From the NCBI GenBank assembly GCA_038501195.1, contig JBBPUQ010000006.1, positions 3,534,001 to 3,598,000 of the forward strand: a stretch of DNA of 64,000 nt, given 5' to 3'. Source of the stretch: Nemania diffusa. Its lineage: Eukaryota > Ascomycota > Sordariomycetes > Xylariales > Xylariaceae. The notes under the pieces are model-generated. The model made no database searches. It had not been told where the DNA came from and saw only the letters and a list, made by a program, of their open reading frames with translations. The position numbers and the translations under genes were made by a program. This document shows, piece after piece, positions 2,473 to 34,509 of this stretch (positions are counted from its first letter, which is position 1; each line of letters opens with the position of its first letter).

Positions 2473-2477
2473 ATATA

Positions 2478-9630: not shown

Positions 9631-10165
9631 AAAACTACTTTATATATATTTTTAATACTAGTTTTATTTAAAATTATTTTATATTAATAAATTAACTAAA
9701 TAAAAAAAGCTTTTAAGTTTTTTTTTTAATTTAATTTTATAGATTTAGTTTTTTTAATTTATATTATATTTTTATAAATTAAATATAAATATTATTTATA
9801 ATAAACTTTATTAAATATATTAATTATTAAATTTAATTAAAAATCTTTTAAATATAAATTATATAATTATATTATAAAATTAAAAAGTAATATTTATAAC
9901 TTTTTTAAAAATATAATTTTTATATTTATATTTAAAAAATTAATATAATTTATTATAAATAATACTTATATTTAAATTTATAAAAATATAATATAAATTA
10001 AAAAAGATAAATTTACAAAGTTAAATTAAAAAAAAAAACTTAAAAGTTTTTTTTATTTATTTAATTTATTAATATAAAATAGTTTTAAATAAAACTAATA
10101 TTAAAAATATATATAAAATAGTTTTAAAAAACTTATTTTTTAAAACTTTTATATTTATTTATATT
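9631..10165 (+). repeat. Dispersed direct repeat R1, copy b
   Basis: Matches copy a (1449-1765) in the same orientation. The best segment is 9942-10165, and a further match lies near 9631-9672. An extra stretch of roughly 220 bp between the two matching segments is absent from copy a. The differences are transitions. It lies just downstream of Gypsy copy 1. Confidence 0.58.
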
Positions 10166-10533
10166 AAAAATATAATTAAATTAAATTGTTTTTATAATAT
10201 AATTATTTATTAATAAAAAAAGTTAATTTAAATTTTTTATATAATAATTAAATTTTATTTAATAATAATTTTTTTTTTTTTTAAAATTATTATTATTATT
10301 TTAATTTGTTATTTTAAATTATTAATATAAAATTAATTTATAAAATTTGTTTTTATTATTAATAAATTTTATAAATAATAAATTTTATAAATAAAATAAT
10401 AATTAAAATTATAATTAATTAATTAATTTAATTTAATTAATGTTTAAATTTTTAAATAATAATATTTTTTTATAAATATAAATAATATATTATATTAATA
10501 GTTTTATTTTAAATATATAATTAAAATAATTTT

Positions 10534-10732
10534 ATAAAAAAATAGCTATTATTATACTATGTTATATTATATATATAGTAAATATAAATTAAATATTAGC
10601 TAATTAATATTTAAAAAAATATAATATATAGAATTAATTTTTAAATAAAAATAATTTATTATAATTATTTTTTAAAATTAACAATTATTTTATAAAGTAA
10701 TTATATTTATATTATATATTGCAATTTTTATA
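10534..10732 (+). repeat. Repeat X, plus-oriented copy 1
   Basis: About 195 bp, beginning near AATAGCTATTATTATACT and ending CAATTTTTAT. Matching copies are at 10804-11000 (minus), 24614-24810 (plus) and 33375-33570 (plus). Together with a 71-bp spacer this copy faces the next one tail to tail and forms a local inverted repeat. The spacer (10733-10803) also follows the X copy at 24614-24810, so the shared unit is longer than X alone. Confidence 0.72.
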
Positions 10733-10803
10733 TTTTTTTATTTTTATATTAAATATTATAATATAATAATTAATAAATAAAAAAATAAAATAACTAAATT
10801 ATT

Positions 10804-11000
10804 ATAAAAGTTATAATATATAATATAAATATAATTATTTTATAAAATAATTATTAATTTTAAAAAATAGTTATAATAAATTATTTTTATTTAAAAATTA
10901 ATTTTATATATTATGTTTTTTTAAATATTAATTAATTAATGTTTAATTTATATTTACTATATATATAATATAATATAATATAATAATAATTATTTTTTTA
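10804..11000 (-). repeat. Repeat X, minus-oriented copy 2, outer end of left palindrome arm
   Basis: Reverse complement of X. It marks the outer boundary of the left arm of the giant inverted repeat and corresponds to the plus-oriented X at 33375-33570 that ends the right arm. Confidence 0.75.
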
Positions 11001-14000
11001 TATTATTTTTTTTTTAAAAATATTAGTTTTTAATATTAATTAATATTATTAATTTTGTTATTATTAATTTATATATTTTTATATTTATAAAATTAGCATT
11101 AAATTTATTAATTATATTATATATATTAAATATATATTTATTTATAAATATAAAAAATATTTTTATATTTTTATAAATAAATATTTAATTGTTATATTTT
11201 AATTAATTTTTATATATATTATTATATATTTTTTTTTTTTTTTTTTTATATTTTATAAATTTTATAATTATTTTTTAGTTTTTTTTTTTTAACTTTTTAT
11301 TAATTAATTATTTATTTATATTTTTATTTTTGTTTTTATTTTTATTTTTATTTTTTTTTAATTTTTTTTTTTAATTTTTTTTTGCTTTTTTACTATTTGT
11401 TATAATATTATAAAAAACTTTTATTAACATTTACTTTTTTAAAAAAAAATAAAGCTAATAATATTTTAATTATAAAATATTTATTAAAAAAAACAATAAT
11501 AATAAAAAGTTTTAAATTTAAAATATTTTTAATATAAAGTTTTATTTTTAATATATTATTAAAATATATTATTTATATATATTAGTTTTATTTAATAATA
11601 TTAAATATATTTTATATATATATAATTATATAGTTTGTTTTATTATAAATTATTTTTATAATTTATAATTATTTATTGCTTTATATATTAAAATTTTTAA
11701 TATTTTTTTTTTTTTTTTTTTTTTTTAAATATTATTTAAAAATTTATTAAATTTTTTTTTAATTTTATTATATATATAAAAAATGTTTTTTTTTTTACTA
11801 TTAAATTAATATTATTTAATTAATTAACAAATATATTTTATATTAAAATTGTTATATATATATTTTAAAAAAAGTTAATTTTATTTTATATAAAATAATT
11901 CAAAAAAAAAAATATATTATTTTTATTATTTTTAATTTTAAATATTTAATAATTATTTAAATTAAAATTATTATTATTTATTATTTTTTAATTTTTTAAT
12001 TAAAAATATTAATTATAAACTTTTTAAATATTTTTTTTATAATTTATATTTATTTAATAATTTTTAATTATTTTTTTAATATTTTATTATTAATTAATTT
12101 ATAATTAAAAAAAAACTTGTTATATTTTTGTTATTATATAATTAAAATATAATTAAAACTTTGTTTTTTTTTTATTTTAATATTTGTTTTTATATTTTTA
12201 ATATTAATTTTTTTATATTTATTAAAACAGCTATTAATTAATTAATAAAATATTATTATATAAACTTTATTTAATTTTTTAATATAAATTTATTATTTTA
12301 AAATAATATTAATATTAAAATTATTAAAATTAAAACAATTATTTTATAAAATCTTTATTTTTATATTATATAATATTTTTTTAAATATAAATATATTAGT
12401 TTAATTATTTAAACAATAATAATAAATTTATTTTATATATATTTAATAGTTAATATATTATTATTAATTAAATTTAATAGTTTTTTTTTTTTAATAATAA
12501 TTTTTTTAAATTTTAATAAAACTTTTTTTTAATTTATATAATATTTAATTATTTTTATAAATTTATTTATAAAATATTTAATATTAATTTATTAATTTAT
12601 TATTAATTTTAAATTTTATTTTATTATAACAATTTTTATAAATTATTTTTCAATTATTTTATAGTTTTTTAGTTTTTATTAATTTTTATTAGCAGTTTTT
12701 TTTTTAAATTTTTTTTTATTAATATTTAATATTTATTTATTTTTTTTAAATTTTTATATTAATAAAATTTTTGTTAACTTTTATTAATAAAACTTAGTTT
12801 TTAATAATTTTTTTAATTTTATTTAATAAACTAAATTTTTAATTAATTATTTTTTTTTTATTTATATTTTTTAATAATTATTATAATAAAATATTATTAT
12901 TTATATTATTTTTAGTTTTAAATTAAATTATTTTATTTTATATATAATTTTTTTATTTTTTATTTATATTTTATAAAAAAACTTTTATATTAATTAAATA
13001 TTTTTTTAATTTTTATATATTATATTTAATAAATTAATTTTTTTATTTTATTAAATATTTTAATATATTTTTGTTTTTTTTATAATAAATTATATTTTTT
13101 ATTATTTATTTTTTTTATTTATTTTTTAATTTAAAAAATATTGTTTATTTTTTATTTTTTTAATATTTAATTTATAATTTTAAAAATAATATAAAAAATA
13201 TATTATATATTTTTAAATATTATAAAAATAATTTTATTTAATATATTTATAGTTTTATTTTTTTTATAATTTTTATTTTAATATATATAAAAATTAATTT
13301 TTAATTATATTTAAATTAAAAATAAATTATAAATAATTTAATTATTTTTTTTATTTTATATTTTTTTATTATATATTTTTTATTATAGTTTTTTTTTATT
13401 ATTTTTATAATTTTAATTTAATATTTATTATATATTTTTTAAATAATTACAATTTATTATAGTTTTTTTTTTTATTTTTTATATTTTTAATTATAGTTTT
13501 TTTAAAATAAATTTTATAATTTTAAAATAATAACTATATAAAATTTTAAAAAATAAATATTTAATAATAATATATATATTGTTATTATATATAAATTTAG
13601 TTTTTTAAAATATTTTAAATTATATATTTAGTTTTTAAATAATATATATTTTTAAATATTTTTTAAAAATTTAATAAAAATATTTTATATATTTATTAAT
13701 TTATAAATATTAAATAATAAATAATTATTATTTGATTTTTTTTTTATTATAAAATTTTTTTTAAAAATAGTTTATAATTAATTTATTTTTATTATTTATA
13801 ATTTTTTTTAATAAATTAAATTTATATTTTATTTGTTTATATAATATTTATATTAATTTAATAATATTAAAAGTTTTTATAATAAATATAAATAATATTA
13901 TTTTTATAAAATAATTAATAATTATTAAAATTATATTATATTTAATTTTATTAATTTTAATATATAAAAATAACTTTATAATAAAGTTTAAATTAATTTT

Positions 14001-14336
14001 TTAAAATAACTACTTTAATAAAAATAATATTTATAATTTTTTATAAAATTTATATTTAAATTATTTAATTTTATTATATATTTAATAGTTTATAATATAT
14101 TTATAAATATTTTATTTTAATTTTTTTTAATAAAATTTTTATTAAAATAATTTAATTATTTTTTTTTTTTTTATATAATTTATATTAAAATTATTATAAT
14201 ATTAATAATTAATTTATTAAAATAAAATTTTTTAATATAAAAATATAAAATAATTTTTAAATAAAAATATTTTATTATTATTTATATAATAATTTTTTTT
14301 AGTTTTAATATATTAATAAATAATTTTAATAAATAT

Positions 14337-14572
14337 AGTTATAAATTAGTTAATATTAAAACTATTAATTACTTAAATAAATAAGTAGCTTTATTATATA
14401 GCTAAATAAATAACTTATTTACTGCTGCTTTAAACTGTTTTGTATATATATATAAGCAATTTTTGTACAGAAAAATTTCTAACTTTTTTTTTTTTTTTTT
14501 ATTTATAGATTTTTTGTATAATATAGCTTTATTTATTTAAAGCTTTACTTTTTTTATAAGCTTTGTATAATA
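14337..14572 (+). repeat. 5' LTR of Gypsy copy 2
   Basis: 236 bp, starting AGTTATAAATTAG and ending TTTGTATAATA. Same length as the 3' LTR and very similar to it. Differences are C/T and G/A. Confidence 0.87.
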
Positions 14573-17500
14573 ATTTATAAATTATTTATAAATTATAAAA
14601 CATAAAAACTACTTTTAAATATTTTTTAAAAAAAAACTAAATTATAATAAGTTGCTATTATAGCATTAATACTTAAAAAGTATACTATTTTTAAACAGCA
14701 AACTAAAAAACAAGTTAATTTAACTTTTAATAAATTATAACTGTTTACAATTATAAATAACAAGCAATTTTTTTCAACTTTTTATATAAAAACTAATGCT
14801 TAAATATATTTTAAAAAACTTAGCTAAAATATTTTAGTTATTATAAAAACTAAAAATAACAATAAATTGATTATTTTAGCTATTTTAATAAAAAGTTTTT
14901 ATAACTAAATTTAAAACTTTTTTTTTATATATAAATATTATATTTTTAACTAAAAAAACTTTTATTAAAAAACAAACTATTTATTAAAAAAATATACTGT
15001 TAAATTATATAAGTTTAATAAAATTGCATTTTTTTTTATTTTTATTATTATATTAAACAAAAAAACTTAGTTTAAATTTAATAAACTAGTTAATAAAAAA
15101 GCTTTTATTAATTTAACTAAATATTTTAATATATTGTTTTAAAAAATAAAAGCTAAATTTTTAATAATAATAGTATATTAATAATAAACTAAAAACTTAT
15201 ATAATTTAGCTATATTATTTATTTAATATATAAAAACTTTTGTTAATTAAATTAAAAAGTTTAGCAAAATTGCAATTAATAAAAAAAAACAATTAAACTA
15301 TTTAATAAAAAACAATAAAAAAAAGCTTGTTTTCAACTTTTATTTTAAACAAACTATTAATTATTTATTTTAAAAGTTAAAAGCAGCTACTATTAAATAT
15401 AATTATATTTAAAAATTACTAAATAAAACTAACTAGTATATTATTAATTTATTTTTTTATAAAAGTAATATTTTAAAATTTATTTAAACAAATAAAAAAT
15501 TTTGCAAATTAGCTAAAATATTTATATTTATTTTTTATAATAATAAAAACAAAAACAATATTAAATTTAAAATATAACTACATGTTATAAAAAGTTAACT
15601 AATTATTAATAAAAACTAGTTTGTTAATAAAGCTACAAAAATAACTAATATTAAAATTTATATTAGTAGCAAAATTGCTAAATATTTATTTTTATATTTA
15701 ACTAAAAGTTATTTTAATTAATTAATTACTATTAAAGTTTTTTTTAACTACTTAAAAAAAAGTTATAAAAATGTTAATACAAATAAAAAGTTTAAATTAA
15801 AATAAAAGTTTTTTAACTTTAATAATTATATTTTTGCTACTTTTTTTAACTTTAAAATAAATTTTATTTGTTTAATTAAAAAAACTAAGTTAAAAAAAAA
15901 AAAGTGAAAAAAATACTTTAAAAATAAGCTATTTAGCAAATTATTAAGCACTTTTTTTGTATATTTTAATAATAATGTTTTATTTAATTAATATATTAAA
16001 TTTTATATTTAATTAATTTATTAAATATATATAAATAATAAAAAACACAATATTAAATAAAAAACTAACTAGTTAACTTTTTTTAATAATATAGTTAAGT
16101 TAGTTTTATATAATACTTGTAATAATATTAGCAATATTTTAAACAAAGCTAAAAACAACAAAAACAGCAACATTAAAATAAATAATAACATTAATAAAAC
16201 TTTAATTGTAAAAAGTTATAATTTTTTAAATAGTTTTAAATTATTAAAGCTAACTAAAAAAAGCAAATGTTTTAACTACTAGTAAAAAAAATACATATTA
16301 AAAAACTACTTTTTAAATAATATTAAAAAAAAAGTATATTTATAAACTATTATAGTTATATTTGTTAATTTTTATAATAAAGCAAAAGTTTTAAAAAATA
16401 TTACTATAAAAAAAACTAAAAAAACAAAAACGCTAAAAAAGTAATTTTAAACAAATTAAATTTCTGCTTAAAAAAAATATCGCAAAAAGATTTTATAAAT
16501 AACAAATTAAACTTAATAAATAAATATTTAAAAAAATAGCTTTTACTATATATATATACTATAAGTAGTAATAAATTTTTATTAACTATTAAAAATTTTT
16601 TTAAAAATATAAAAGCAAATATATATATAAATATAAATGTATTATTTGCTGAAAAAATTGTAAAAATACTAAACTTTTTTTTTATTATTTAATTTTATTT
16701 GCAATTTATATTTAGCTATAACAGAAAAAAAAAACAAAATATTAAAGCTGTTTTATTAGTATTTTTATAAATATAAAAAAAAAACTTTAAAAATATACTT
16801 TTAGTAATAATATTTTCGCAAATTTATAAAATTATTATTAAAAAGCTTTAGTTTTAAAAATACAATATATTTTTTAATTGCTACAAATATTAAATAATAT
16901 TTTTATTTAGTTATTTTTTTAATTAATATTTTAATTAAAACTTAAATATAAACTAAATAAAAATATAGCTTAAAAATTTAAAATATTAAACTAATATAAA
17001 CTAATAAAATATAAAATTTGTTAAAAAAAAACAAAAATATTTATAATAATAAAAAAATACTAAAAAAAGTTAAATAATATTTTAAATTTTTATTATTAAA
17101 CAACTAAACTTTGTTAAAAAAAGTTTAAATAAAATATAGCGTAACTTAAATAATAACTTTTACTTTTTAATAAAAATAAAAAGAAAAAAAGTTCAAAAAA
17201 AAAACGAAAAAATTACATTATAATAAAAAATAAATAATATAAAATTTTACAAAATATAAAAAAATAAACTAAAATAATATAAAACTAAACTATTTATAAA
17301 AATAGCTAATTTTAACGCAGCTGTTTTTAATATATTAGTTTTTTAAAACAATTTTATATAACAAATATAAATTATTACTTTTTATAAAATTAACAAGTTT
17401 ATTAAAAATAAAAAAAAGAACTTTTTTAACAAAAAAAAAAAAAACTTTTAAAAAAAAGTTTTATAAATAATTTTTTAAAAGTACTATAATTTATTATATA

Positions 17501-17984
17501 TATTTAATAAAATTAATTTTAATATTTTATTATTTTATAAATTAAAAATAAACTATAAAATTAAATTTATAAAAAACAAAGCTTTTAATAACTTTTAATA
17601 TAGCTTTTTATATAAAATATTTTTAAATAAACTAAAAGCAATTTATAAATATTTAATTAATAATTTATATAAAAAATTTATTAAACTTAATAATGCTTTT
17701 TATATATTATTTGTATTATTTATAAAAAAGTTTAGCAAAAAATTAAAGTTTTATATAAATTATTACAAACTTAATAAATTAATAAAAAAAAATAAATACT
17801 TTTTATTTTTAATTAAAAAAATATTATTATAACTATTTAAAGCTAATATATTTATTAAATTAAATATATAATAAATATTTAATTAAATATATATAAAACT
17901 TAAATAAAAAGATTTAATAACTTTTTGTATATATTATAAGTTTTTTAAATATAAAATATTTCTATTTAGTTTAATTAATAAATT

Positions 17985-18100
17985 TGTTATATTTTAAAAA
18001 TATATTAATAATATATTGTTTAATTATTTAAACAATTTTTGTAGTATATATATAAACAATATTTTTATTTATTTAAACAATATAAAAAATTATAAAAAGT
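17985..18100 (+). pseudogene. Reverse-transcriptase relic in Gypsy copy 2
   Basis: Reading through 18043-18060 gives S-I-Y-I-N-N, followed by I-F-I-Y-L. This is the Y-[ILV]-D-D active-site box of Ty3/Gypsy reverse transcriptase with both Asp codons mutated to Asn, matching the relic in copy 1 at 6184-6195. Stops interrupt the frame on both sides. Confidence 0.78.
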
Positions 18101-20791
18101 ATATATAAATAGTATTACAACAATTATATGCTATAAAGTTTTAAATAAATTTAAAAAAGTTTAAATTTTATATTATAAAAACTAAATTTTTAAAATATAT
18201 TGTTAGTATAAATAACATTTAAATTAACTTAGTTAAAATAAATATAATAAAAAATTAAAAAGCTTTTATTATTGTAAAAAAAATGCAATTTTTTTTAAAA
18301 TTTTATAACTTTTACAAAAAGTTTGTTAAAAATTATAGCAAAATTGCTATTTTTATAATATAACTAATTAAAAAAACGTAGTTTTTTTATAAATTTAAAA
18401 ATATAACTAAGTTTTTATACAATTAAAAAAAGCATTAATATTTTATTTAATATTATAATATTATAAATATAACTTATTTATAAAAATTAAAACAAACATT
18501 TTTAATAATATAGCAGTTAATATATTATTACAAAAGTATAATAATAATTAATACTTAATTGTTTATTATTTTAAAATTTTATAAAATATTAAGCTAAATT
18601 ATAAAATTTTCGATAAAAAAATACTTATAATATTACTAGCTTTTAAAAAATAACAACTTAAATTAATTAATAAACAATTTAAACTATTTTTAATAATAAC
18701 TAATTATTAAGTTTTAAAACATTTTTTTTAAAAGTAATATTTAAATTTACAATAAATAAAATAAATTAAATTATTTATAAAATATAACTTTTATATTATA
18801 TACTGTTTTAAAAAAAAAAACATATTAGTTAATATATTAACAAAAAAATATAAAAACTTTATTATAAAAAAAAAAAAAAAAAAAATATAAAAACATTTAA
18901 CAATTTTTTAGCTAATAAATAATTTAATATATAATATATTTATATAAATAATTAAATAAATTAAATTATTTATTATAAAATTATAAAAAAATATAAAAAG
19001 TTTATTAAATTTTTAGTTAATAATAAAAATATTTTAAAAAAATAAAAAAAACTTTAATATAAAAATATATTATAAAAAAACTACTTTTAATAAAAACAAC
19101 TTGTAGTAAATAACTAATAGTTTAATTATTTTTAATAAAAAATTTATAGTTTTTAATTTTTTATATTTTTATATTTAATTTATTTAAAAAATATATAATA
19201 AAATATTTATAATATATTTAAAAAAAAAAAAAATATATAAACTTTTTACAAAATGTTATTAATAACTTAATTTTAAAAACAATTGTAATATATATATTTT
19301 CAACTATATAAAATACTACTTTATAAAAGTTTTATATAATAAAACATTTAACAAATTTATATTATTTTTTGTTTTAAATTATATATAAAAACATTTAGTT
19401 GTTAATTTTAAACAAATGTTTAAAAATAAACATAGTTTTAATAATATATTAATTATAATAAACCAGTTAAAAAAAAAAGTATAAACTATACTTTATACTA
19501 TAAAAATAACTGTAAAAAATACTATATAAATATATTACAAAAGTTTTTTTAAAATTTTTAAAGTATTAATTATAATAATATTTAATAAAAAACTTTAGTT
19601 TATATTTATATTTATAAATAAACTATATAAAATTATAAAAATTAAATATATTTTAATATTTATAAATTATTATAAAACTATTAAACAAATTAAAATTATA
19701 AATAAATATTTAAATTAATAATTTTAATTTTATATTAATTATTACTAAAATAATTAATTTAAATAAATTTTTGTAATAAATTATATATAAGCTTTATTGC
19801 TTTATAAATTAACAAAACTATTATTTTATAAAATTGAAATAAATTTTTTTATATTATTTTATTTTAATTAAAAAAACTATATTGTTTAAAAAAAGTTAAA
19901 AAAACATTATAAATAAATATATAAAACAAAATATAAAAAATTATATAGTTTATTAATTTTGCTAAAAAAAGTTTAAAATATATTTAAAACTATATAACTA
20001 AATAAATTAACTAAAAGTGTTATAATTTTAATTTTAATATAAACAATTATATATTTATATTAAAAAAATAACAATTTTAAATTATTAATAAACTTTTAAA
20101 TAAGTTTAATTATTTAATAATATAACAAATATATAAAATATTAAAAAAAAATAGTAATATATTTATATTATAAGTTTTATTGTTATAACAATTAATAAAT
20201 TAATACTATATTAACTGTTTACAAAAATATTTTAATAATTTACTAATAAATTAAAAAACTAATAATTTTAAAAACAAAATATTTAAACTTAAAAGCAAAA
20301 AAAAATTCAAAGTAAAAAAAATATATATAGTATAACTATATTACTAAAAGTTGTAATATTAAATTAACTAAAAAAAATAAAACATTAATAATAAATAATA
20401 TTATATTAAAAACTTTAAAAATAATTTTATATTATTAAAAAATTTTTATAATAACAATTTAAATATAACAAAACTTTTTTTAAAATTAAATTAATAACTA
20501 TAAATAATATAAAATAATATTATTAAAAGTTTTTATATTAATAACAACTTATTAACTGTACAAAAAAAAAAAAAAATATGTAAAAAATATGTTTAAAACA
20601 TATTACTGCTAAAATTTAGCAATATTAATTGTAAAAAAGCTATATTATAACTTAATAAAAAAAAAGCTTAACAATTAATAATACAATAAATATTCGAAAC
20701 AATTTTTTTTTTTGTTAAAAAGTACTTAATTAAAACTTATATATTTAAATTTTATAATTTATAAACAAGCTATTTTTTTAAAAAAAAAAAT

Positions 20792-21027
20792 AGTTATAAA
20801 TTAGTTAATACTAAAACTATTAATTGCTTAAATAAATAAATAGTTTTATTATATAGTTAAATAAGTAATTTATTTACTGCTGCTTTAAACCGCTTTATAT
20901 ATATATATAAGCAATTTTTGCGCAAAAAAATTCCTAACTTTTTTTTTTTTTTCTTATTTGTAGATTTTTTGTACAATATAGCCTCATTTATTTAGAGCTC
21001 TGCTTTTTTTGTAAGCTTTGTACAACA
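20792..21027 (+). repeat. 3' LTR of Gypsy copy 2
   Basis: 236 bp, ending TTTGTACAACA. It keeps more C and G than the other three LTRs (for example GCCTCATTTATTTAGAGC), so it is the least decayed of the four and best shows the ancestral LTR end (...ACAACA). Confidence 0.87.
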
Positions 21028-24000
21028 AATATTATAATATTTAAATTTTCAATTTATAATTTTTTAATTATATTATAAAACTTTTTTAAAATTTATAATT
21101 AAAATATTATTTTATTTTTAATTAATTTTTTAATTATAAAATATAAAATATATTAATTATAAATAATAATTTTAATATTATATTTTTATAATATAAATAT
21201 AAATTAATTAATATTTATTTAAATTAATTTAATAATTATTAATATATAAACTGTTATAATTATATATATTTAATAAATAAAACATTTATAATTATATTTT
21301 TTATTTTATATTTTTTAAAAATTATTTATAATTATATAATAAAAATATAACTTTTTATAAATATTTAAATTTATTATTTAAATTATAATTATTAAAAATT
21401 TAATTAAATAATATTTAATTAATATTTTTTAAAAAGTTTAAATTAATTATTTCAATATTTTTTTTTTTTTTTTATATATAATATTATAGTTATAATTTAT
21501 TAAATTTATATAAATAAATTATTTATTAATTGTAATTTTTTTTATAATATTAAAATTATATTTTTATATTAAATTTTATTTATTATATAATTAAATTTTT
21601 TTAATAAATTATTTATAAAATTAATAATTTTTAATTAATATTAAATTTTAAAATTAAATTAAATTAATTATAAAAGTTTTATATAAAAAATTAATTATAT
21701 TTTAAAATATTATATAATTAGTTTATATTATAAAAATATATATAGCTTTTTTAAATATTATTTTTAATATTTATAACTTTTTATTATAATTAATAGTTTT
21801 TATTATTTTATAATTTATTTTATTTTAATATTAATAAATTTATATAATTAATAAATAATTAATTATTATTTTAATTTATATAGTTAAAATAATATATTTA
21901 ATATTATTTTTATTAATATATTAATTTTAATTTATATTTTTAATCGATTATTTTAATATTATAAAATTATTATATTTATAAATATTTTTTTAATTATTTA
22001 AAAAGTTTTTTTTATTTTTTAAATTTATTTAAATATAAATTAATTTATAATTATATTTTTTTTAATAATATTATAATAAATATTATTATTTATAAATATT
22101 TTATAATAAACTTTTAATAAAAATTTACAAAATTTAAAAATATTTATATATTATATATTAATTTAAATATTTTTTATTTTTTAATTATATTTATTTATTA
22201 ATTATTTATTTTAATATTTTTAATATTTATAATAAATTTTAAATTTTTTTTTTTTTTTTTTTTTAAATTATATTTTAATAGTTTTATAAATAATTAATAT
22301 TATTTTAAATATTTATAAATTAATTAAAAATAAATTTTATATTTTTTTTTATATTAAAAAAAATAATAATATTATTTAAATAAACTATATAAATATAATT
22401 TATTAATTTTATTAAAGTTTTATATATATAATTTTAAAATATTATTATATATTTAAAATAATTATAATATATTTAAAAAATAATTTTTTATTTATTATTA
22501 AATTTAGTTTAAATTTAATAATAAATATTTTTTAAATTTAATTTAAAAAATATTTTTATAAATTTTAAATAATTTATAATTTTTAAAATTAAAAATAAAA
22601 AATATTTATTTTTTATAATAATTTTATTTAATTTTTTATAATTTATATATAATTATATTATATTATTTTTTTTAAATATAAATAATATAAATATTTTTAT
22701 ATTTATTTTTAAATATTAAATTTTTTTTAAATATTAATTTTTTATTAAATATTTTTTAAATATTTTTTATTAAATTTTTATAATAAAATATATAAATTTA
22801 AAAAATATTTTCGCTTTTTTTATTAAATTAATTATATATTTTATTTTATTTAAAATTAATAATTTTTTTATATTTTATTTAAAATATATATAATAAAAAT
22901 TTTTAAAATATTATAATAAATTGATTTATTTTAATTAAATTTTATTATTAATTTTTTTTAAAAAAAATTTTTTTTTTAATTTTATATTTATAAAATTTAT
23001 AATAAAAGCTTATTTATTTTTAATTATTATATTAATAAACTTTTTAAAATTTATTTTTTTAAACTTTTTAAAATATTATTAATTTAATATAATATTTAAA
23101 ATTATTTTTAATTATTTTATATTTAATTTTAATAGTAAAAACTTAAATATTAATAAATTATATTTAATAATAAAAAATATTTATATAAAAAATTTATAAA
23201 TATTTTTAATATTAATTATTTTTAATATTATTTTATAAACTTTTTAATAATATAAAAATTTACTATTAAAATTTAATAAAAATAAAATTTATATATTAAT
23301 TAATTAAAACTTTTTTTATATTATATTTTTATATTTATATTTATTATTATTTATTTTTATAATTTTTTATTATATAATTTAAAAATAATTAAAGCTTTAA
23401 ATAGTTTATTTATATAAAATATTTAAAATCTTTTAATTAAAATAAATTAAATATATTATATTATTTTAATTTATTTTTTAATTTTTTTTTAATATTAAAT
23501 TAAACAATTTTAAAATTTTATATTTATTTAAAATATTTTAATATTAATAATTAAATTTTATATATTTTTTAATTATTTATTATTTATATATTACAATATT
23601 TTTTTTAATAGTTTTTAATTAAATCTTTAAATTTGTTATAATAAAAACAAAAAAATATTTTTTTTATTTATATAATTAATTTTTAATTTAAATTAATTTA
23701 TTAAATTAAATATTATTAATATAGCTATATTTATTTATTATATTTTTAATATATAATTATTTAAAAATAAATTTAAATAGTTTATTTATTTGTTATATAT
23801 TTTATTGTTTTTTTGTTTTATATAATATTATTATTATATTATTTAATAAAATTTATTATTAAATAAATACTTTTTTAATATTTTTTTATAGTTTATATTA
23901 ATAATTAAATATTAATTTAAAATTATTGTTTAATTAATTTTTATTTTTTAGTTTATATATTAAAACTTGTTATTTTAAAAAAAAAATTTTAAAAGTTTTA

Positions 24001-24613
24001 TTTTTATTTTAATAAATTTTTATAAGCTATATTTAAAAAATATATTTAAACAATTTAAAGTTTATATTTTTTTTTTAATAAATTTTTAAAAAAATTTTAA
24101 AATAGCTTATATTTTTAATTTTAAATATTTTAAAGTTTTATAATATAACTATTAATTAATTAAAATATTTTATAATATTTAATTTAATATTTAAATCATT
24201 TATATTAAATTGTTATATTTTAACTTTTATTATTTATTTTTTTTAATTATAGCAATTTAATTTTTTATTTTAGCTATAATAGCTTTTTAATTAAATTTTT
24301 TATAATTATAAATTAAATATTTAATATTATTTTTAAATATTAATTAAATAATTTTTAAACTAAATAATTTAATTAATTATATATTTAGCTATATATTTTA
24401 GTTTATTAGTTATATTATTTAAAATAATATTTTTTTAATAAATAATTATTAAATAATAATTAATAATTTTATAAAAGTTTATTTTTACAAAAATAAAATA
24501 TTTTAAAATCGAAATATTAAATCTTATTGATTTTTTAAAAATATATCTTTGTTAAAAAAGTTTTTTTTTAGTTTATTATAACTAATATTTAATTATATAA
24601 CAGTTTATAATTA

Positions 24614-24893
24614 TAAAAAAGCAGCTATTACTATGTTATATTATATTATATATACAGTAGATATAAATTAAGTATTAGCTAATTAGTACTTAAAAAAATA
24701 TAGTATATAAAATTAATTTTTAAATAAAAGTAATTTATTATAACTACTTTTTAAAATTCGCGATTATTTTATAAAACAATTATATTTATATTATATATTA
24801 CAACTTTTATATTTTTTTATTTTTATATTAAATATTATAATATTATAGCTAATAAACTAAAAAATAAAATAATTAAGTTATAAACTGCTATAT
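24614..24893 (+). repeat. Repeat X, plus-oriented copy 3, with its downstream spacer
   Basis: X occupies about 24614-24810. The following roughly 80 bp match the spacer at 10733-10803. This is the least decayed X copy (it keeps GCAGCTATTACTATG and TTCGCGATT). It lies between the left palindrome arm and the central fold-back element. No mirrored X is found on the other side of the centre, so the palindrome is asymmetric here. Confidence 0.72.
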
Positions 24894-24910
24894 AATTAAA
24901 TACTAGCTAC

Positions 24911-25390
24911 TAGAGAACCCACTTTGTGAGGGACTTTCTTTACTACGTTCAGAAAGCCCCAAAACTCATAGATACTTCAATAATTATAAATAGGTCTTAG
25001 CTACTAAAAACGAAGTAAAAACGCTAACTTCAAAGTGAAATACTAACTGTAATAAATGTATAGATGAAATTTTAGTACGAGTGCTGTATTTATATAATTT
25101 AACGCTATTTGCTGATATATATAATGTATAAAATAATATAGTTTAAAAATTATTTCAAACAATGAATTTTATATAACATGTATATATATTATATATATTA
25201 ACAAGTAGCGCTAAATCGTGCAAATATAACGTTTGTACTAGAATTTTATCTGTTTGTTTATTGTAGACAGTATTTTACTTTGAAGTTGTTGTTTTTAGTG
25301 CAAAACTCTGTTTATGATTATTGGGGTGTTTATAAGTTTTGGGGCCTTTTGAACGCAGTGAAAAAGGTCCTCTACAGGGTGGGTTTTTTA
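24911..25390. mobile_element. Fold-back/MITE-like element with long terminal inverted repeats
   Basis: The first 200 or more bases (from GAACCCACTTTGTGAGG) match the reverse complement of the last 200 or more bases (ending CAGGGTGGGTTTTTTA). Matching landmarks are AACCCAC, GCCCCAAAACT, CTAAAAAC, AACTTCAAAGT and TAGCGCTA-like strings. Only a short AT-rich core near 25110-25190 is unpaired. Differences are mostly transitions, but G+C is far above that of its surroundings. There is no open frame. No clear target duplication could be defined. It sits exactly at the axis of the giant palindrome. Confidence 0.72.
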
Positions 25391-28300
25391 ATATAATAAA
25401 TTAAAAAAAGATTTTTTTAGTAAAAATATGTTTTTAAAAAATTAATAAAATTTAATATTTCAATTTAAAAATATTTCATTTTTATAAAAATAAACTTTTA
25501 TAAAACTATTAATTATTATTTAATAATTATTTATTAAAAAAATATTATTTTAAATAATATAATTAATAAACTAAAATATATAACTAAATATATAATTAAT
25601 TAAATTATTTAATTTAAAAACTATTTAATTAATAATTAAAAATAACATTAAATATTTAATTTATAATTATAAAAAGTTTAATTAAAAAGCTATTATAACT
25701 AAAATAAAAAACTAAATTATTATAATTATAAAAAATAACTAATAAAAATTAAAATATAACAATTTAATAAATTATTTAAATATTAAATTAAATGTTATAA
25801 AATATTTTAATTAATAAATAATTATATTATAAAACTTTAAAATATTTAAAACTAAAAATATAAGCTATTTTAAAAAACTTTTAAAAGTTTATTAAAAAAA
25901 AAACGTAAATTTTCAGCTATTTAAATATATTTTTTAAATATAACTTATAAAAATCTATTAAAACAAAAATAAAACTTTTAAAAAGTTTTTTTTAAAATAA
26001 TAAATTTTAATATATAAACTAAAAAATAAAAGTTAATTAAACAATAATTTTAAATTAATATTTAATTATTAATATAAACTATAAAAAAATATTAAAAAAT
26101 TGCTTATTTAATAATAAATTTTATTAAATAATATAATAATAATATTATATAAAATAAAAAAATAATAAAATATATAATAAATAAATAAACTATTTAAGTT
26201 TATTTTTAAATAATTATATATTAAAAATATACTAAATAAATATAACTATATTAATAATATTTAATTTAATAAATTAATTTAAATTAAAAATTAACTATAT
26301 AAATAAAAAAATTATTAATAAAATAAAAACTATAACAAATTATAATATATAAAAACAAATAAACTATTTTTTTATTTTTATTATAATAAATTGAAATATT
26401 TAATTAAAAATTATTAAAAAAAATATTATAATATATAAATAATAAATAATTAAAAAATATATAAAACTTAATTATTAATATTAAAATATTTTAAAAAAAT
26501 ATAAAATATTAAAATTATTTAATTTAAAACTAAAAAAAAATTAAAAAATAAACTAAAATAAAATAATATATTTAATTTATTTTAATTAAAAATTTTTAAA
26601 TATTTAATATAAATAAATTATTTAAAATTTTAATTATTTTTAAATTATATAATAAAAAGTTATAAAAATAAATAATAATAAATATAAATATAAAAATATA
26701 AATATATATTATTTATAAAAATTTAATATAAAAAAAACTTTAATTAATTAATATATCAATTTTATTTTTATTAAATTTTAATAATAAACTTTTATATTAT
26801 TAAAAAATTTATAAAATAATATTAAAAATAATTAATATTAAAAATATTTATAAATTTTTTATATAAATATTTTTTATTATTAAATATAATTTATTAATAT
26901 TTAAGTTTTTATTATTAAAATTAAATATAAAACAATTAAAAATTATTTTAAATATTATATTAAATTAATAATATTTTAAAAAGTTTAAAAAAATAAATTT
27001 AAAAAAATTTGTTAATATAATAATTAAAAATAAATATATTTTTATTATAAATTTTATAAATATAAAATTAAAAAAATTTTTTTTTTTAAAAAGAATTAAT
27101 AATAAAGTTTAATTAAAACAAATTGATTTATTATAATATTTTAAAAATTTTTATTATATATATTTTAAACAAAATATAAAAAAATTATTAAATTTAAATA
27201 AAATAAAATATATAATTAATTTAATAAAAAAAACAAAAATATTTTTTAAATTTATATATTTTATTATAAAAACTTAATAAAAAATATTTAAAAAATATTT
27301 AATAAAAAATTAATATTTAAAAAAAATTTAATATTTAAAAATAAATATAAAAATATTTATATTATTTATATTTAAAAAAAACAATATAATATAACTATAT
27401 ATAAATTATAAAAAATTAAATAAAGTTATTATTAAAAATAAATATTTTTTATTTTTAATTTTAAAAATTATAAACTATTTAAAATTTATAAAAATATTTT
27501 TTAAATTAAATTTAAAAAATATTTATTATTAAATTTAAATTAAATTTAATAATAAATAAAAAATTACTTTTTAAATATATTATAATTATTTTAAATATAT
27601 AATAATATTATTTAAATTAATTAATATTTTAATAATATTTTAAATTTATATATATAAAATTTTAATAAAACTAATAAATTATATTTATATAATTTATTTA
27701 AATAATATTATTATTTTTTTTAATATAAAAAAAATATAAAATTTATTTTTTATTAATTTATAAATGTTTAAAATAATATTAATTATTTATAAAACTATTA
27801 AAATATAATTTTTAAAAAAAAAAAAAAATTTTTAAAATTTATTATAAATATTAAAAATATTAAAATAAATAATAAATAAATAAATATAATTAAAAAATAA
27901 AAAATATTTAAATTAATATATAATATATAAATATTTTTAAATTTTATAAATTTTTATTAAAAATTTATTATAAAATATTTATAAATAATAATATTTATTA
28001 TAATATTATTAAAAAAAAATATAAATATAAACTAATTTATATTTAAATAAATTTAAAAAATTAAAATTTTTTTTTAAATAATTAAAAAAATATTTATAAA
28101 TATAATAATTTTATAATATTAAAATAATTAATTAAAAATATAAATTAAAACTAATATATTAATAAAAGTAATATTAAATATATTATTTTAATTATATAAA
28201 TTAAAATAATAATTAATTATTTATTAATTATATAAATTTATTAATATAAAAATAAAATAAATTATAAATATTAAAAATAATATTTAAAAAAAACTATATA

Positions 28301-30711
28301 TATTTTTATAATATAAACTAATTATATAATATATTAAAATATAATTAATTTTTTTATATAAAACTTTTATAATTAATTAATATAATAAATATATAAATTA
28401 ATTTAATTTAATTTTAAAATTTAATATTAATTAAAAATTATTTATTTTATAAATAATTTATTAAAAAAATTTAATTATATAATAAATAAAATTTAATATA
28501 AAAATATAATTTTAATATTATAAAAAAAACTATAATTAATAAATAATTTATTTATATAAATTTAATAAATTATAGCTATAATATTATATATATAAAAAAA
28601 AACAAAAATATTAAAATAATTAATTTAAATTTTTTAAAAAATATTAATTAAATATTATTTAAATAAAGTTTTAATAATTATAATTTAAATAATAAATTTA
28701 AATATTTATAAAAAGTTATATTTTTATTATATAATTATAAATAATTTTTAAAAAATATAAAATAAAAAATATAGTTATAAATGTTTTATTTATTAAATAT
28801 ATATAATTATAATAGTTTATATATTAATAATTATTAAATTAATTTAAATAAATATTAATTAATTTATATTTATATTATAAAAATATAATATTAAAATTAT
28901 TATTTATAATTAATATATTTTATATTTTATAATTAAAAAATTAATTAAAAACAAAATAATATTTTAATTATAAATTTTAAAAAAGTTTTATAATATAATT
29001 AAAAAATTATAAATTGAAAATTTAAATATTATAATATTTATTAAAATTATTTATTAATATATTAAAACTAAAAAAAATTATTATATAAATAATAATAAAA
29101 TATTTTTATTTAAAAATTATTTTATATTTTTATATTAAAAAATTTTATTTTAATAAATTAATTATTAATATTATAATAATTTTAATATAAATTATATAAA
29201 AAAAAATAAAATAATTAAATTATTTCAATAAAAATTTTATTAAAAAAAATTAAAATAAAATATTTATAAATATATTATAAACTATTAAATATATAATAAA
29301 ATTAAATAATTTAAATATAAATTTTATAAAAAATTATAAATATTATTTTTATTAAAGTAATTATTTTAAAAAATTAATTTAAACTTTATTATAAAGTTAT
29401 TTTTATATATTAAAATTAATAAAATTAAATATAATATAATTTTAATAATTATTAATTATTTTATAAAAATAATATTATTTATATTTATTATAAAAACTTT
29501 TAATATTATTAAATTAATATAAATATTATATAAATAAATAAAATATAAATTTAATTTATTAAAAAAAATTATAAATAATAAAAATAAATTAATTATAAAC
29601 TATTTTTAAAAAAAATTTTATAATAAAAAAAAAATTAAATAATAATTATTTATTATTTAATATTTATAAATTAATAAATATATAAAATATTTTTATTAAA
29701 TTTTTAAAAAATATTTAAAAATATATATTATTTAAAAACTAAATATATAATTTAAAATATTTTAAAAAACTAAATTTATATATAATAACAATATATATAT
29801 TATTATTAAATATTTATTTTTTAAAATTTTATATAGTTATTATTTTAAAATTATAAAATTTATTTTAAAAAAACTATAATTAAAAATATAAAAAATAAAA
29901 AAAAAACTATAATAAATTGTAATTATTTAAAAAATATTTAATAAATATTAAATTAAAATTATAAAAAAAATAAAAAAAAATTATAATAAAAAATATATAA
30001 TAAAAAAATATAAAATAAAAAAAATAATTAAATTATTTATAATTTATTTTTAATTTAAATATAATTAAAAATTAACTTTTATATATATTAAAATAAAAGT
30101 TATAAAAAAAAAAACTATAAATATATTAAATAAAATTATTTTTATAATATTTAAAAATATATAATATATTTTTTATATTATTTTTAAAACTATAAATTAA
30201 ATATTAAAAAAATAAAAAATAATTAATATTTTTTAAACTAAAAAATAAATAAAAAAAATAAATAAAAAAAATAAATAATAAAAAATATAATTTATTATAA
30301 AAAAAATAAAAATATATTAAAATATTTAATAAAATAAAAAAGCTAATTTATTAAATATAATATATAAAAATAAAAAAAATATTTAATTAATATAAAAACT
30401 TTTTTTATAAAATATAAATAAAAAATAAAAAAAATATATATTAAATAAAATAATTTAATTTAAAATTAAAAATAATATAAATAATAATATTTTATTATAA
30501 TAATTATTAATAAATATAAATAATAATAAAAAAAAAACAATTAATTAAAAAATTAATTTATTAAATAAAATTAAAAAAATTAATAAAAAAATTAAATTTT
30601 ATTAATAAAAATTAATAAAAATTTTATTAATATAAAAAGTTTAAAAAAAAAAACAAATATTAAATATAAATAAAAAAAAAGTTTAAAAAAAAAACTATTA
30701 ATAAAATTTAA

Positions 30712-30882
30712 TGTAAAAAGTTAACTGCTGCACTAAAAGCGCACCGACTAGAGTTATTGCTCTGTTAATAATAACTTGTACAATACTAGTTTATATTGCA
30801 ACTGTATAACTTGCAGTCGCGCTTCAACTGCTAAACAGTTAAAACTGCACATGTACAAAGCAGAGCTACTTGTTTTTTTACA
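30712..30882 (-). repeat. LTR of the miniature element (3' LTR in minus orientation)
   Basis: 171 bp. The counterpart at 31625-31795 has the same length. This copy carries more A/T at the variable sites (for example GTTAACTGCTGCAC against GTTGACCGCTGCGC). Confidence 0.84.
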
Positions 30883-31542
30883 CTATTTTTTTTTTTGGAA
30901 GAATTAGTTCCGAATTTATTACTTAAATATGTTTTAAACGAAGTTTCTTCGACGCTGCAGTCGGAATATAAACGTTTCAAAAATTCTTCAGAAACTAAAC
31001 TCTGTGCTTCACTAGTCGTACAATAGTACACCCTAAGCTTGTTTCACTAGTATATATCTAGACACTGTTTACGTATTAATCGGAATATCTTCGGAAACAT
31101 TTGTTAATTGGTACAGCTTTAATTTGCGTACAATTAGTTTTTACAGATAAGTTATATATAACGCAACAATTACACATATATATTGTTCTAGTAATACGTT
31201 TATACAGTATACTCGTACTATACGTAAATATTTTCAAACCGTACTTAGTTTGAAATAAAATCAGAATACAATTGTATATTAATTAGTTTGTAGTATAAAA
31301 GAATACTCTGTAACACGTTTTTTACTAAGTAGTTTAGCAATTAATTTCTAATTAGCTATTTATAGAAGTGTAGCAATGTGTAGCTTAAGTGTTTTAAGCT
31401 AGTTGTAACTGGAGTTCTTAGTTTTATGTACAATATGTACAGTTTGTATATAGTTTAAAATCGTACAACTACAGTATTTATACTAAGAAGTTAGTATAGT
31501 TCAGTATTAAAAATAAAGTTAAGTTTTTATTCCTTTCTTCGA

Positions 31543-31648
31543 AAATGCTTCGTTCCGAAGCATTTCCGTACGTACTACAACTTAAATTCGAACCAGTAAC
31601 TCCCTAGTGCAGAAGCAATAGCAGTATAAAAAGTTGACCGCTGCGCTA
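31543..31648 (-). promoter_or_regulatory. tRNA-like Pol III promoter (A and B box) and hairpin in the miniature element
   Basis: On the minus strand, TAGCGCAGCGG (31648-31638) fits the A-box consensus TRGCNNAGYNGG as far as it extends. GGTTCGAATTT (31594-31584) matches 9 of 11 positions of the B box GGTTCGANNCC. The 43-nt gap is normal for tRNA-type promoters. Downstream is a perfect 10-bp stem with a 3-nt loop (AAATGCTTCG 31543-31552 with CGAAGCATTT 31556-31565), followed by a TTTT run on the minus strand. The A box lies in the LTR and the B box in the interior. That it is functional is inference. Confidence 0.45.
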
Positions 31649-31795
31649 AAAACGTACTGACTAGGGTTATTGCTCCATTAGCAATAACTTGTACAATACT
31701 AGTTTATATTGCAACTGTACGACCTGTAGTCGCACTTCGACCGCTAAGCAGTCGGAACTGCATATGTACAAAGTAGAACTACTTGCTCCTTTACA
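31625..31795 (-). repeat. LTR of the miniature element (5' LTR in minus orientation)
   Basis: 171 bp, the less decayed copy, ending CTCCTTTACA on the plus strand. Read on the minus strand it runs from TGTAAAGGAG to TTTTTATA. Near its end it contains TAGCGCAGCGG, a match to the tRNA-gene A box. Confidence 0.84.
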
Positions 31796-33374
31796 TTTAA
31801 TAAAAATTAAAAAAATATAAAATAGTTAAAAAATAATTTATAAAAATTGCTATAATAAAATAAAATTTAAAATTAATAATAAATTAATAAATAAATATTA
31901 AATATTTTATAAATAAATTTATAAAAATAATTAAATATAATATAAATTAAAAAAAACTTTTATTAAAAATTAAAAAAATTATTATTAAAATAAAAAAAAA
32001 ACTATTAAATTTAATTAATAATAATATATTAATTATTAAATATATAAAAAATAAATTTATTATTATTATTTAAATAATTAAATTAATATATTTATATTTA
32101 AAAAAATATTATATAATATAAAAATAAAAATTTTATAAAACAGTTGTTTTAATTTTAACTATTTTAATATTAATATTATTTTAAAATAATAAATTTATAT
32201 TAAAAAATTAAATAAAATTTATATAATAATATTTTATTAATTAATTAATAAATATTTTAATAAATATAAAAATATTAATATTAAAAATATTAAAATAAAT
32301 ATTAAAATAAAAAAAAAAGTAAATTTTAATTATATTTTAATTATATAATAATAAAAATATAATAGATTTTTTTTTTAATTATAAATTAATTAATAATAAA
32401 ATATTAAAAAAATTATTAAAAATTATTAAATAAATATAAATTATAAAAAAAATATTTAAAAATTTTATAATTAATATTTTTAATTAAAAAATTAAAAAAA
32501 TAATAAATAATAATAATTTTAATTTAAATAATTATTAAATGTTTAAAATTAAAAATAGTAAAAATAATATGTTTTTTTTTTAAATATATATATAGCAATT
32601 TTAATATAAAATATATTTATTAATTATTTAAATAATATTAATTTAATAGTAAAAAAAGCGTTTTTTATATATATAATAAAACTAAAAAAAAATTTAATAA
32701 ATTTTTAAATAATATTTAAAAAAAATAAAAATTTAAAAATATTAAAACTTTTAATATATAAATTAATAAATAATTATAAATTATAAAAATAATTTATAAT
32801 AAAATAAATTGTATAATTATATATATATAAAATATATTTAATATTATTAAATAAAACTAATATATATAAATAATATATTTAAAAATAAAAATATATTTTA
32901 ATAATATATTAAAAATAAAACTTTATATTAAAAATATTATAAATTTAAAATTTTTTATTATTATTGTTTTTTTTAATAAATATTTTATAATTAAAATATT
33001 ATTAGTTTTATTTTTTATTAAAAAAATAAATTTTAATAAAAGTTTTTTGCAATATTATAGCAAATAATAAAAAAGCAATAAAAAATAAAAAAAAATAAAA
33101 AATAAAAAAAAATAAAAATAAAAATAAAAACATAAATAAAAACATAAATAAATAATTAATTAATAAAAAGCTAAAAAAAAAACTAAAAAATAATTATAAA
33201 ATTTATAAAATATATAAAAAAAAATTAAAAAATTTATAATAATATATATAAAAATTAATTAAAATATAAAAATTAAATATTTATTTATAAAAATATAAAA
33301 ATATATAAATTAACAATAACAAAGTTAATAATATTAATTAATATTAAAAACTAATATTTTTAAAAAAAAAATAT

Positions 33375-33570
33375 AAAAAAACAGTTATTATAATATTATA
33401 TTATACTATATATATAATAAATATAAACTAAATATTAATTAATTAATATTTAAAAAAACATAATATATAAAATTAATTTTTAAATAAAAATAATCTATTA
33501 TAACTATTTTTTAAAATTAGCAATTATTTTATAAAGTAATTATATTTATATTATATATTGCAACTTTTAT
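33375..33570 (+). repeat. Repeat X, plus-oriented copy 4, outer end of right palindrome arm
   Basis: From about AAAAAACAGTTATTATAAT to GCAACTTTTAT. It is the reverse complement of the X copy at 10804-11000, and similarity between the two arms stops at its end. Confidence 0.75.
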
Positions 33571-34509
33571 AAATTTATTTATTATATATAAATTATATAA
33601 AATAAATAATAATTATATATTTAAATTAAATATTTATTAATAAATAAAAAACAATTTTAAAATAATATTACAATTATAAAAAATATAAAAGCTAATTAAA
33701 TAATTTTATTAATTAAAAACTTTTTAAAAAAAAAAAAAAAAAAAGCTAAATTATATATATATATTATATAAAATATATAAATATATAAAACTATAAATAA
33801 AGTTATAAATAAAGTTATAAAGTTTAATTAAAATTTCTTTAAAGTAAGTTTTATAAAATGGATTTTTTAAAATAAATTATTTTAAAGATTGTAGTTTTTA
33901 TAAATTAATAAAAATCGCAGAATTATATTGCAATAAAGTGCGCAAGTTTTAATCCATAATTAATAAAATAAATATAAAAGTCAATAGTTTATATAAATTG
34001 TTATATTATTTAACTATTATATAATAATATATTCATTTATTTAATTTTATATTTTTAATTATATATTATATATTATAATGTTTTATTATTTATTATATAT
34101 ATATATATATATTTATTAATAATTATTAAAACAATTATATAATATAAAAAAATATTAAAATATTAATTTTTAAAAAAAATTAAATTTAAGCTTTTTTTAA
34201 TATATTTAAAACTTATATATAAAAAGTATATATTAATTATATAAATAGTATTGCTAGTATTAAATAGTTTATATAACACACTAGAAAAAGCTTGTTACAT
34301 AATTATTTCAAATTAAAGCTAATTACTAATACAACACCAAAGCACATGCACCAAATCTGACATAACTCGCTAATGGTTACATTCGGGCGATAGAGCCTCT
34401 TTTACATAGGTATATATATACACTAAATAGACTCTAATAGTCTAGTTATCTCTACGATACAGTTTCGAGACTGCTACAATCGACCCTGAGCTCCTCTGCA
34501 TACGCTTGT
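33571..34509. other. Transition from AT-rich block to gene-bearing DNA
   Basis: No repeat copy was recognised within the window. The sequence stays AT-rich to about 34,250, with slightly less decayed patches (for example near 33840-33960). It then becomes normal within a few tens of bases near 34,280-34,330. The last 200 bp are the 3' flank of the minus-strand GH79 gene. Confidence 0.6.

What the first reader, a model, noticed from the sequence alone, without database searches (positions are those of the whole stretch)
10804..33570. Giant inverted repeat (two arms of about 7.1 kb) hidden in RIP-decayed DNA
Nine separate stretches of 10.8-24.6 kb match the reverse complement of 25.4-33.6 kb in perfect order. 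After subtracting one Gypsy insertion from the left arm and one miniature LTR element from the right, the arms differ by only about 10 bp in length. Such a palindrome could form a large hairpin or double-stranded transcript, and would itself be a strong RIP target. Either two copies of an unknown 7-kb element sit head to head, or one element was duplicated by inversion.
Basis: seen in the sequence. Interest (0 to 1): 0.75.

Follow-up and report, generated by a model that had tools for sequence, protein, structure and literature searches.

The report
Retrotransposon nested inside its own twin
The giant inverted repeat is a mobile element that jumped backwards into an older copy of itself inside a mutation-ruined, centromere-like stretch of a fungal chromosome; the two copies later recombined with each other, probably flipping the small piece between them.

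Summary
The inverted repeat is real. Two arms (10803-24580 and 25392-33571, about 7.1 kb each once inserts are discounted) are 95.4% identical over 6884 aligned bases. It is not an unknown palindromic element. Single copies elsewhere in the genome show a 7.5-kb LTR retrotransposon with 201-bp LTRs and 5-bp target duplications (TSDs; 9 of 11 two-ended copies), probably Ty3/Gypsy. An older (+) copy (10533-33571, TSD AATTT) was hit in its 5' leader by a (-) copy (TSD ATTAT; inverted ATAAT at the axis). The ~270-bp LTR-plus-leader loop at the axis is flipped relative to a plain nested insertion. The arms share a 1.27-kb tract with 8 differences where about 58 are expected, beyond any of 165 other copy pairs: they exchanged sequence after RIP decay. 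A Gypsy, a mini-LTR element and a MITE inserted later. Most copies lie in one AT-rich block per contig (9 of C1-C11), as VdLTRE9 does at Verticillium centromeres, while the Gypsy is dispersed. Verdict: a nested, RIP-dead, probably centromeric retrotransposon pair recording recombination between its arms; a new member of a known kind.

The parts
10533..33571 (+). Outer (older) copy of the 7.5-kb LTR retrotransposon, split by the inner copy and later inserts
   Evidence: LTR start at 10533 and LTR end at 33571 aligned with LTRs of 7 other copies; TSD on both sides
10528..10532 (.). 5-bp target-site duplication AATTT of the outer copy, left side; right side is 33572-33576 (AATTT)
   Evidence: chance of a 5-base match between random AT-rich flank positions of the window is 0.021
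10533..10802 (+). 5' LTR (10533-10733) and start of leader (to 10802) of the outer copy, cut at element position 270
   Evidence: 88.9% to 24611-24881; element positions 1-270
10798..10802 (.). 5-bp target-site duplication ATTAT of the inner copy; partner is the inverted ATAAT at 24607-24611
   Evidence: positions follow from the LTR termini
10803..24611 (-). Left arm: inner (younger, minus-strand) copy, element positions 7506 down to ~266; 3' LTR at 10803-11003
14337..21027 (+). Gypsy-type LTR retrotransposon inserted in the left arm (234-bp LTRs, TSD AATAT, RNase H remnant just above the Pfam cut-off); a related copy lies at 2585-9184
   Evidence: dispersed family
24612..24910 (+). Axis loop: 5' LTR (24612-24812) and leader, joined in plus orientation to the right arm; flipped relative to a simple nested insertion
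24911..25391. MITE-like insert with terminal inverted repeats, GC 28%, at the leader/body junction of the right copy; absent at that site from the six other copies printed
25392..33571 (+). Right arm: element positions 300-7506, 3' LTR at 33371-33571
30712..31795 (+). Miniature LTR element (1084 bp, ~160-bp LTRs, TSD TTTAA), GC 32%, inserted in the right arm
13432..14336 (-). Left-arm part (1 of 2) of the homogenised tract; part 2 is about 21028-21397, beyond the Gypsy insert
28669..29937 (+). Right-arm part of the homogenised tract (element 3592-4859; 8 differences in 1268 compared bases between arms)
28081..28328 (+). Position of the RNase H domain in the right arm, projected from a less decayed stray copy (L031); no domain was sought or recognised in the arm itself
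29168..29332 (+). Position of the integrase zinc-binding (H2C2) domain, projected likewise from L032

Best explanation
The inverted repeat is two copies of one 7.5-kb LTR retrotransposon, probably Ty3/Gypsy. An older plus-strand copy (10533-33571) received a minus-strand copy in its 5' leader at element position 270, which gave two head-to-head arms around a short loop. RIP then ruined both copies (GC 2-3%). After that decay the arms recombined: they share a 1.27-kb homogenised tract, and the LTR-plus-leader loop between them is inverted, most simply by a crossover between the arms. A Gypsy element, a mini-LTR element and a MITE inserted as well, probably afterwards. The family accumulates in one AT-rich block on most large contigs, most likely the centromere. 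Shown: two copies, LTRs, TSDs, shared breakpoint, homogenised tract, clustering. Inferred: the order of insertions, that the tract and the loop flip are one event, that the blocks are centromeres, and that clustering reflects targeting rather than selective survival.
For: LTR ends TGTAAAA...CTTTTACA are intact in some less decayed copies. Of 11 copies outside the window with both LTR ends in hand, 9 have identical 5-bp flanks. In the window the outer copy is bounded by AATTT/AATTT and the inner junctions carry ATTAT and ATAAT. The fragment 10533-10802 ends, and the left arm stops, at the same element position (~265-270), as expected if one piece was split by insertion. Arms are 99.4% identical over element 3592-4859; log-likelihood score 35.0 against at most 15.7 for the other 165 of 166 copy pairs and at most 10.9 in 1000 permutations. 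In the tract the arms share 54 differences from the C11 copy (35 transitions) and show 8 private ones; outside it 110 shared and 272 private. Self-nesting recurs: a plus copy inside a minus copy at C7:767741-773627 and C8:3561830-3569377, both with TSDs. Pfam RNase H (34.3 bits in L031, 32.5 in L032; cut-off 29.8) and, in L032, H2C2 downstream (26.4 bits, cut-off 25.5). Clustering: 32 of 34 strong places of a 731-base piece (the two window arms included) lie in one block per contig on 9 contigs, whereas the Gypsy family's 40 scored places are spread over C1-C11. Both searches score at most 40 candidates.
Against: Two of 11 two-ended copies lack matching TSDs: C11 (TATAG/AATAA) and C7:763581-777.2k (TATAT/TTAAA). 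A TSD match in such AT-rich DNA has a 2% chance. LTR comparison does not tell which 5' LTR belongs to which 3' LTR: the axis LTR has 23-25 substitutions against each of the other three window LTRs. The loop flip is inferred from structure; no unflipped allele was seen. Adjacent antiparallel copies elsewhere show no homogenised tract (C8b/C8c 6.9, C7b/C7c 5.1-5.3, C7a/C7c 4.2-9.8). No RT domain was matched. No CENP-A or Hi-C data; C1 and C10 gave no clear copy in capped lists, and two stray copies lie outside the blocks.
Confidence: 0.88

Rival explanations
1. Autointegration plus homologous recombination: one copy integrated into its own leader before reaching the chromosome, forming an inverted circle, which then recombined into a resident copy through the shared LTR/leader. 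This gives the same final order without any loop flip.
For: Predicts exactly the observed order (LTR+leader plus, body minus, LTR+leader plus, body plus) and a TSD-like repeat at the internal site. The mechanism of autointegration is recalled, not from a call.
Against: Needs a rare circle and its capture, while ordinary self-nested insertions with TSDs are seen twice elsewhere in the fetched regions. Does not by itself explain the tract homogenised after RIP.
Confidence: 0.2
2. Segmental duplication by inversion of a single element.
For: Two arms of nearly equal length in perfect order.
Against: Each arm's outer end is a retrotransposon LTR end with a TSD, not an arbitrary breakpoint. Overall the arms are hardly closer to each other (95.8%) than to the C11 copy (95.1-95.2%).
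Confidence: 0.03
3. Assembly artefact (foldback read or collapsed repeat).
For: AT-rich repeats assemble badly; no reads were available.
Against: Arms differ at 4.6% of sites, with separate inserts and TSDs. The same unit occurs as complete single copies elsewhere.
Confidence: 0.03
4. The near-identical 1.27-kb tract reflects template switching between RNA genomes before insertion, or constraint, or polishing error, not exchange between the arms.
For: Retroviral-type recombination makes mosaic elements (recalled). No reads to exclude polishing error.
Against: The arms share decay states that arise after insertion (35 shared transitions against C11 in the tract), and the arms differ from C11 there as much as elsewhere. 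Polishing error would tend to leave no differences; there are 8.
Confidence: 0.1

Closest known systems
VdLTRE9 of Verticillium dahliae (PMC7482064; passages seen)
   Same: ~7.3 kb with ~200-bp LTRs, remote similarity to Gypsy-like elements, RIP-like AT enrichment, 204 of 215 matches at the eight centromeres
   Different: VdLTRE9 consensus is ~75% AT and its centromeres are backed by CenH3 binding; here the arms are 97-98% AT, there is no ChIP, and no sequence comparison with VdLTRE9 could be made
Fission-yeast centromeric inverted repeats (PMC7193609; abstract seen)
   Same: Recombination between inverted repeats at a centromere
   Different: There (recalled) the repeats are a regular feature of each centromere; here one pair arose by nesting on one contig, at the edge of an AT-rich block not proven to be a centromere
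Nested LTR retrotransposons of plant and fungal heterochromatin (recalled)
   Same: Insertion of one element into another, so that the order of events can be read
   Different: Insertion into its own kind in opposite orientation, with a flipped loop and an exchange tract between the arms

Membership tests
LTR retrotransposon | Direct terminal repeats with TG...CA ends | tested here: met
   201-bp LTRs; TGTAAAA or CTTTTACA intact in several less decayed copies, TA for TG/CA in decayed ones
LTR retrotransposon | 4-6 bp target-site duplication | tested here: met
   5 bp in 9 of 11 two-ended copies outside the window (6 of 7; C7e, L031, L032 yes and C7c no) and for both window copies
LTR retrotransposon | Primer-binding site and polypurine tract | tested here: inconclusive
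   A-rich purine stretch before the 3' LTR in the 7 copies printed; no tRNA-like PBS recognised by eye after the 5' LTR
Ty3/Gypsy superfamily | RNase H precedes integrase | tested here: met
   Both above cut-off in L032 (element ~2969-3253 by L031, H2C2 ~4091-4255); RNase H alone in L031; both below cut-off in C7e; nothing in C3b or on the opposite strand of C7e
Ty3/Gypsy superfamily | Reverse transcriptase domain itself | tested here: inconclusive
   No RVT match at E up to 1 in the 4 copies scanned; the test has little power, since the left-arm Gypsy gave none either. Membership is therefore called probable only
Centromeric retrotransposon (CRM/VdLTRE9-like) | Concentrated in one region per chromosome | tested here: met
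Centromeric retrotransposon (CRM/VdLTRE9-like) | Overlap with CENP-A chromatin | not testable with these tools
   needs ChIP or Hi-C
RIP-mutated DNA | Loss of G/C by C-to-T, copies differing mainly by transitions | tested here: met
   GC 2.3-3.2% in the arms; the two LTRs of 7 copies differ by 11-36 transitions against 0-3 transversions
RIP-mutated DNA | Raised TpA/ApT with depleted CpA+TpG | tested here: inconclusive
   Substrate index 0.31-0.58 in the arms is low as expected (1.08 in the genic part); TpA/ApT is only 1.06 (0.95 in the genic part), perhaps because nearly all G/C is gone

The most novel reading that the evidence does not exclude
RIP-saturated DNA (down to 1.4% GC over 2 kb) at a filamentous-fungal centromere remains a working substrate for homologous recombination: nested antiparallel retrotransposons create inverted repeats whose arms are gene-converted and whose loop can flip, so that transposition seeds fission-yeast-like centromeric inverted repeats.
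Probability: 0.35. Interest if true: 0.55.

Novelty: new member of a known kind. Interest (0 to 1): 0.36.

Why it matters
It turns an odd giant palindrome into a readable sequence of events and indicates that arms decayed by RIP still exchanged sequence. It also gives a candidate centromere marker for a Nemania-like fungus. In the held library, 'Nemania' with 'repeat-induced point mutation' gave no paper, 'Nemania' with genome, transposable element and AT-rich none, 'Xylariaceae' with 'centromere' three listings, none on that family by title, and 'Nemania' with genome and retrotransposon one listing on a Xylaria genome, not read.

Tried and rejected
Terminal-inverted-repeat DNA transposon: suggested at first by the inverted LTR copies at 10803 and 24612; rejected because single two-ended copies have direct LTRs. 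Inversion duplication and assembly artefact: see rivals. LTR comparison to assign the axis LTR: uninformative. Arm-wide closeness as proof of common origin: rejected, since C11 is about equally close. Preference for antiparallel nesting: the window, C7:767741 and C8:3561830 cases and one one-sided case (C7:763581 in the copy at 759688) are all antiparallel, too few to claim a bias. Homogenised tracts in other adjacent antiparallel pairs: none. Whole-window self-comparison with small words timed out. Paper searches: searches returned nothing, one unread listing, three listings off the point; some searches gave listings, of which only PMC7482064 (passages) and PMC7193609 (outline and abstract) were opened. 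A tRNA scan of the window found none with the bacterial-code setting.
Full report
Where the window lies. The window is C6:3534001-3598000 of a 55.6-Mb, 16-contig genome. The open frame at 46506-49616 is part of Med12 (Pfam); its best match, 98% identical over 1036 aa, is from Nemania diffusa, so the host is a Nemania-like member of the Xylariaceae. In 1-kb bins, bases 1-34000 have 1-14% GC except 31-32 kb (25%, the mini-LTR element); 34.5-64 kb has 49% GC. Four 3-kb samples at C6:3400, 3450, 3480 and 3510 kb have 4-9% GC, so the AT-rich block is probably more than 165 kb long and ends at about window 34 kb.

The observation. Eight inverted blocks at 91-96% identity link 10802-24580 to 33572-25392 in perfect order. 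The arms have 314 differences in 6884 aligned bases and, without inserts, measure 7088 and 7096 bp. Similarity between AT-rich stretches that look unrelated is 65-73% here.

The unit. One copy on C11 (1506706-1514211) is uninterrupted and served as reference. Nineteen copies or parts of copies, the two window arms among them, were compared. Seven copies with both ends are 5.9-7.55 kb long (six are 7.46-7.55 kb; the 5.9-kb one has an internal deletion) with LTRs of 201 bp. Less decayed copies show TGTAAAA at the start or CTTTTACA at the end. Of these seven, six have identical 5-bp flanks and C11 does not; a later check of four more gave matches for C7e, L031 and L032 and none for C7:763581-777.2k, so 9 of 11. 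Two stray copies outside the family's main blocks (C7:4.066 Mb, C6:1.939 Mb; GC 15.5 and 16.6%, 259-326 stops per forward frame) gave Pfam RNase H above the curated cut-off, and the second also the integrase H2C2 domain downstream, the Ty3/Gypsy order. One of the less decayed block copies (C7e) gave the same two at sub-threshold scores in two frames. Another block copy (C3b) and the opposite strand of C7e gave nothing. No RT match was found, but the left-arm Gypsy gave none either.

The architecture. In single copies element positions 299 and 300 are contiguous; in the window's right copy they are parted by a ~480-bp MITE-like insert (24911-25391). The right copy has an LTR at each end in direct orientation (24612 and 33371). 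The left copy (minus) has its 3' LTR at 10803 but stops at element position ~266 beside the axis. Left of it lies a plus-strand fragment with element positions 1-270 (10533-10802). The flanks of the whole are AATTT (10528-10532) and AATTT (33572-33576). The junctions of the minus copy carry ATTAT (10798-10802) and, inverted, ATAAT (24607-24611). So the fragment at 10533 is the start of the outer copy, and the minus copy inserted at position 270. In a plain nested insertion the minus copy's own LTR and leader would then read on the minus strand at the axis; instead they read plus and run on into the right arm. Recombination between the head-to-head arms inverts exactly this loop. Autointegration followed by capture by a resident copy would give the same order.

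Recombination between arms. In 200-bp bins the arms differ at about 5% along most of their length, but over element positions 3592-4859 only 8 of 1268 bases differ. A maximum-scoring-segment test gives 35.0 for this pair; the next of 166 copy pairs scores 15.7, and 1000 permutations reach at most 10.9. In the tract each arm differs from C11 as usual (6-13 per 200), yet the arms share 54 of those differences, 35 of them transitions, i.e. of RIP type, with 8 private; outside, 110 are shared and 272 private. Homogenisation therefore came after most of the decay. The left-arm Gypsy sits inside the tract (element 3957-3962), so it probably came later; it is also less decayed (GC 9% against 2-3%). 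Adjacent antiparallel pairs elsewhere (C8b/C8c, C7b/C7c, C7a/C7c) score 4.2-9.8, within the permutation range, so conversion is not automatic.

Chromosomal distribution. A 731-base piece of the unit finds 34 places with E below 1e-100, the two window arms and two pieces of one split copy included; 32 lie in one block on each of C2, C3, C4, C5, C6, C7, C8, C9 and C11 (blocks up to 160 kb; a single place each on C2 and C5), and two are strays. An LTR-plus-leader query gives the same picture. The Gypsy found in the left arm has 40 places at E below 1e-300 over all of C1-C11. In both searches at most 40 candidates are scored, so counts are lower bounds. This contrast, and the resemblance in size, LTR length and placement to VdLTRE9, which marks Verticillium dahliae centromeres (PMC7482064, passages), make centromeres the best reading of these blocks. 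It remains untested, and C1 and C10 have no clear copy in these lists.

Order of events. (1) Outer copy inserts. (2) Inner copy inserts antiparallel into its leader. (3) RIP reduces both to 2-3% GC. (4) The arms recombine: homogenised tract and, perhaps in the same event, loop inversion. (5) Gypsy inserts in the left arm and is partly decayed. (6) Mini-LTR element and MITE insert, still at 28-32% GC. Steps 1, 2, 5 and 6 rest on junctions and TSDs (for the MITE, on its absence from other copies), their relative dates on composition, step 4 on the tract (shown) and the loop (inferred).

Assessment. A nested retrotransposon pair is ordinary; this one is preserved well enough to be read in full and carries evidence of exchange between extremely AT-rich inverted arms. 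I found no sign that the palindrome has a function.

Noticed in passing
window 27274-29273: 2 kb with 1.4% GC inside the right arm; the arms as a whole have 2-3% GC. This looks extreme for RIP; one paper search for a comparison figure returned nothing.
   Followed up: partly
window 1533-1767, 9585-9817 (-), 9940-10167: A ~230-bp repeat of another family in three copies, two of them in inverted orientation 120 bp apart (88-93% identity).
   Followed up: no
window 30712-31795: Little-decayed miniature LTR element whose first bases (TGTAAAAAG) resemble the LTR start of the 7.5-kb unit; relatives include places within about 150 kb of unit copies on C4, C8 and C11, and others on C1, C2, C3 and C9. 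Possibly a non-autonomous rider.
   Followed up: partly
window 24911-25391: MITE-like family with ~75-bp terminal inverted repeats; paired ends about 0.8-2.8 kb apart on several contigs suggest larger relatives.
   Followed up: no
L031 (C7:4065500-4073999), L032 (C6:1938000-1946999): Two stray, less decayed copies of the 7.5-kb element far from the family's main block on their contigs, both with 5-bp TSDs.
   Followed up: partly
copies listed: In 6 of 7 copies the 5' LTR has 18-23.5% GC against 7-13% in the body and 9-18.5% in the 3' LTR (in C7d only just more than the 3' LTR), as if RIP were weaker at the 5' end; C11 is decayed throughout.
   Followed up: no
window 34510-36027 (-): A 505-aa open frame with a GH79 C-terminal domain lies directly beside the end of the AT-rich block.
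   Followed up: no
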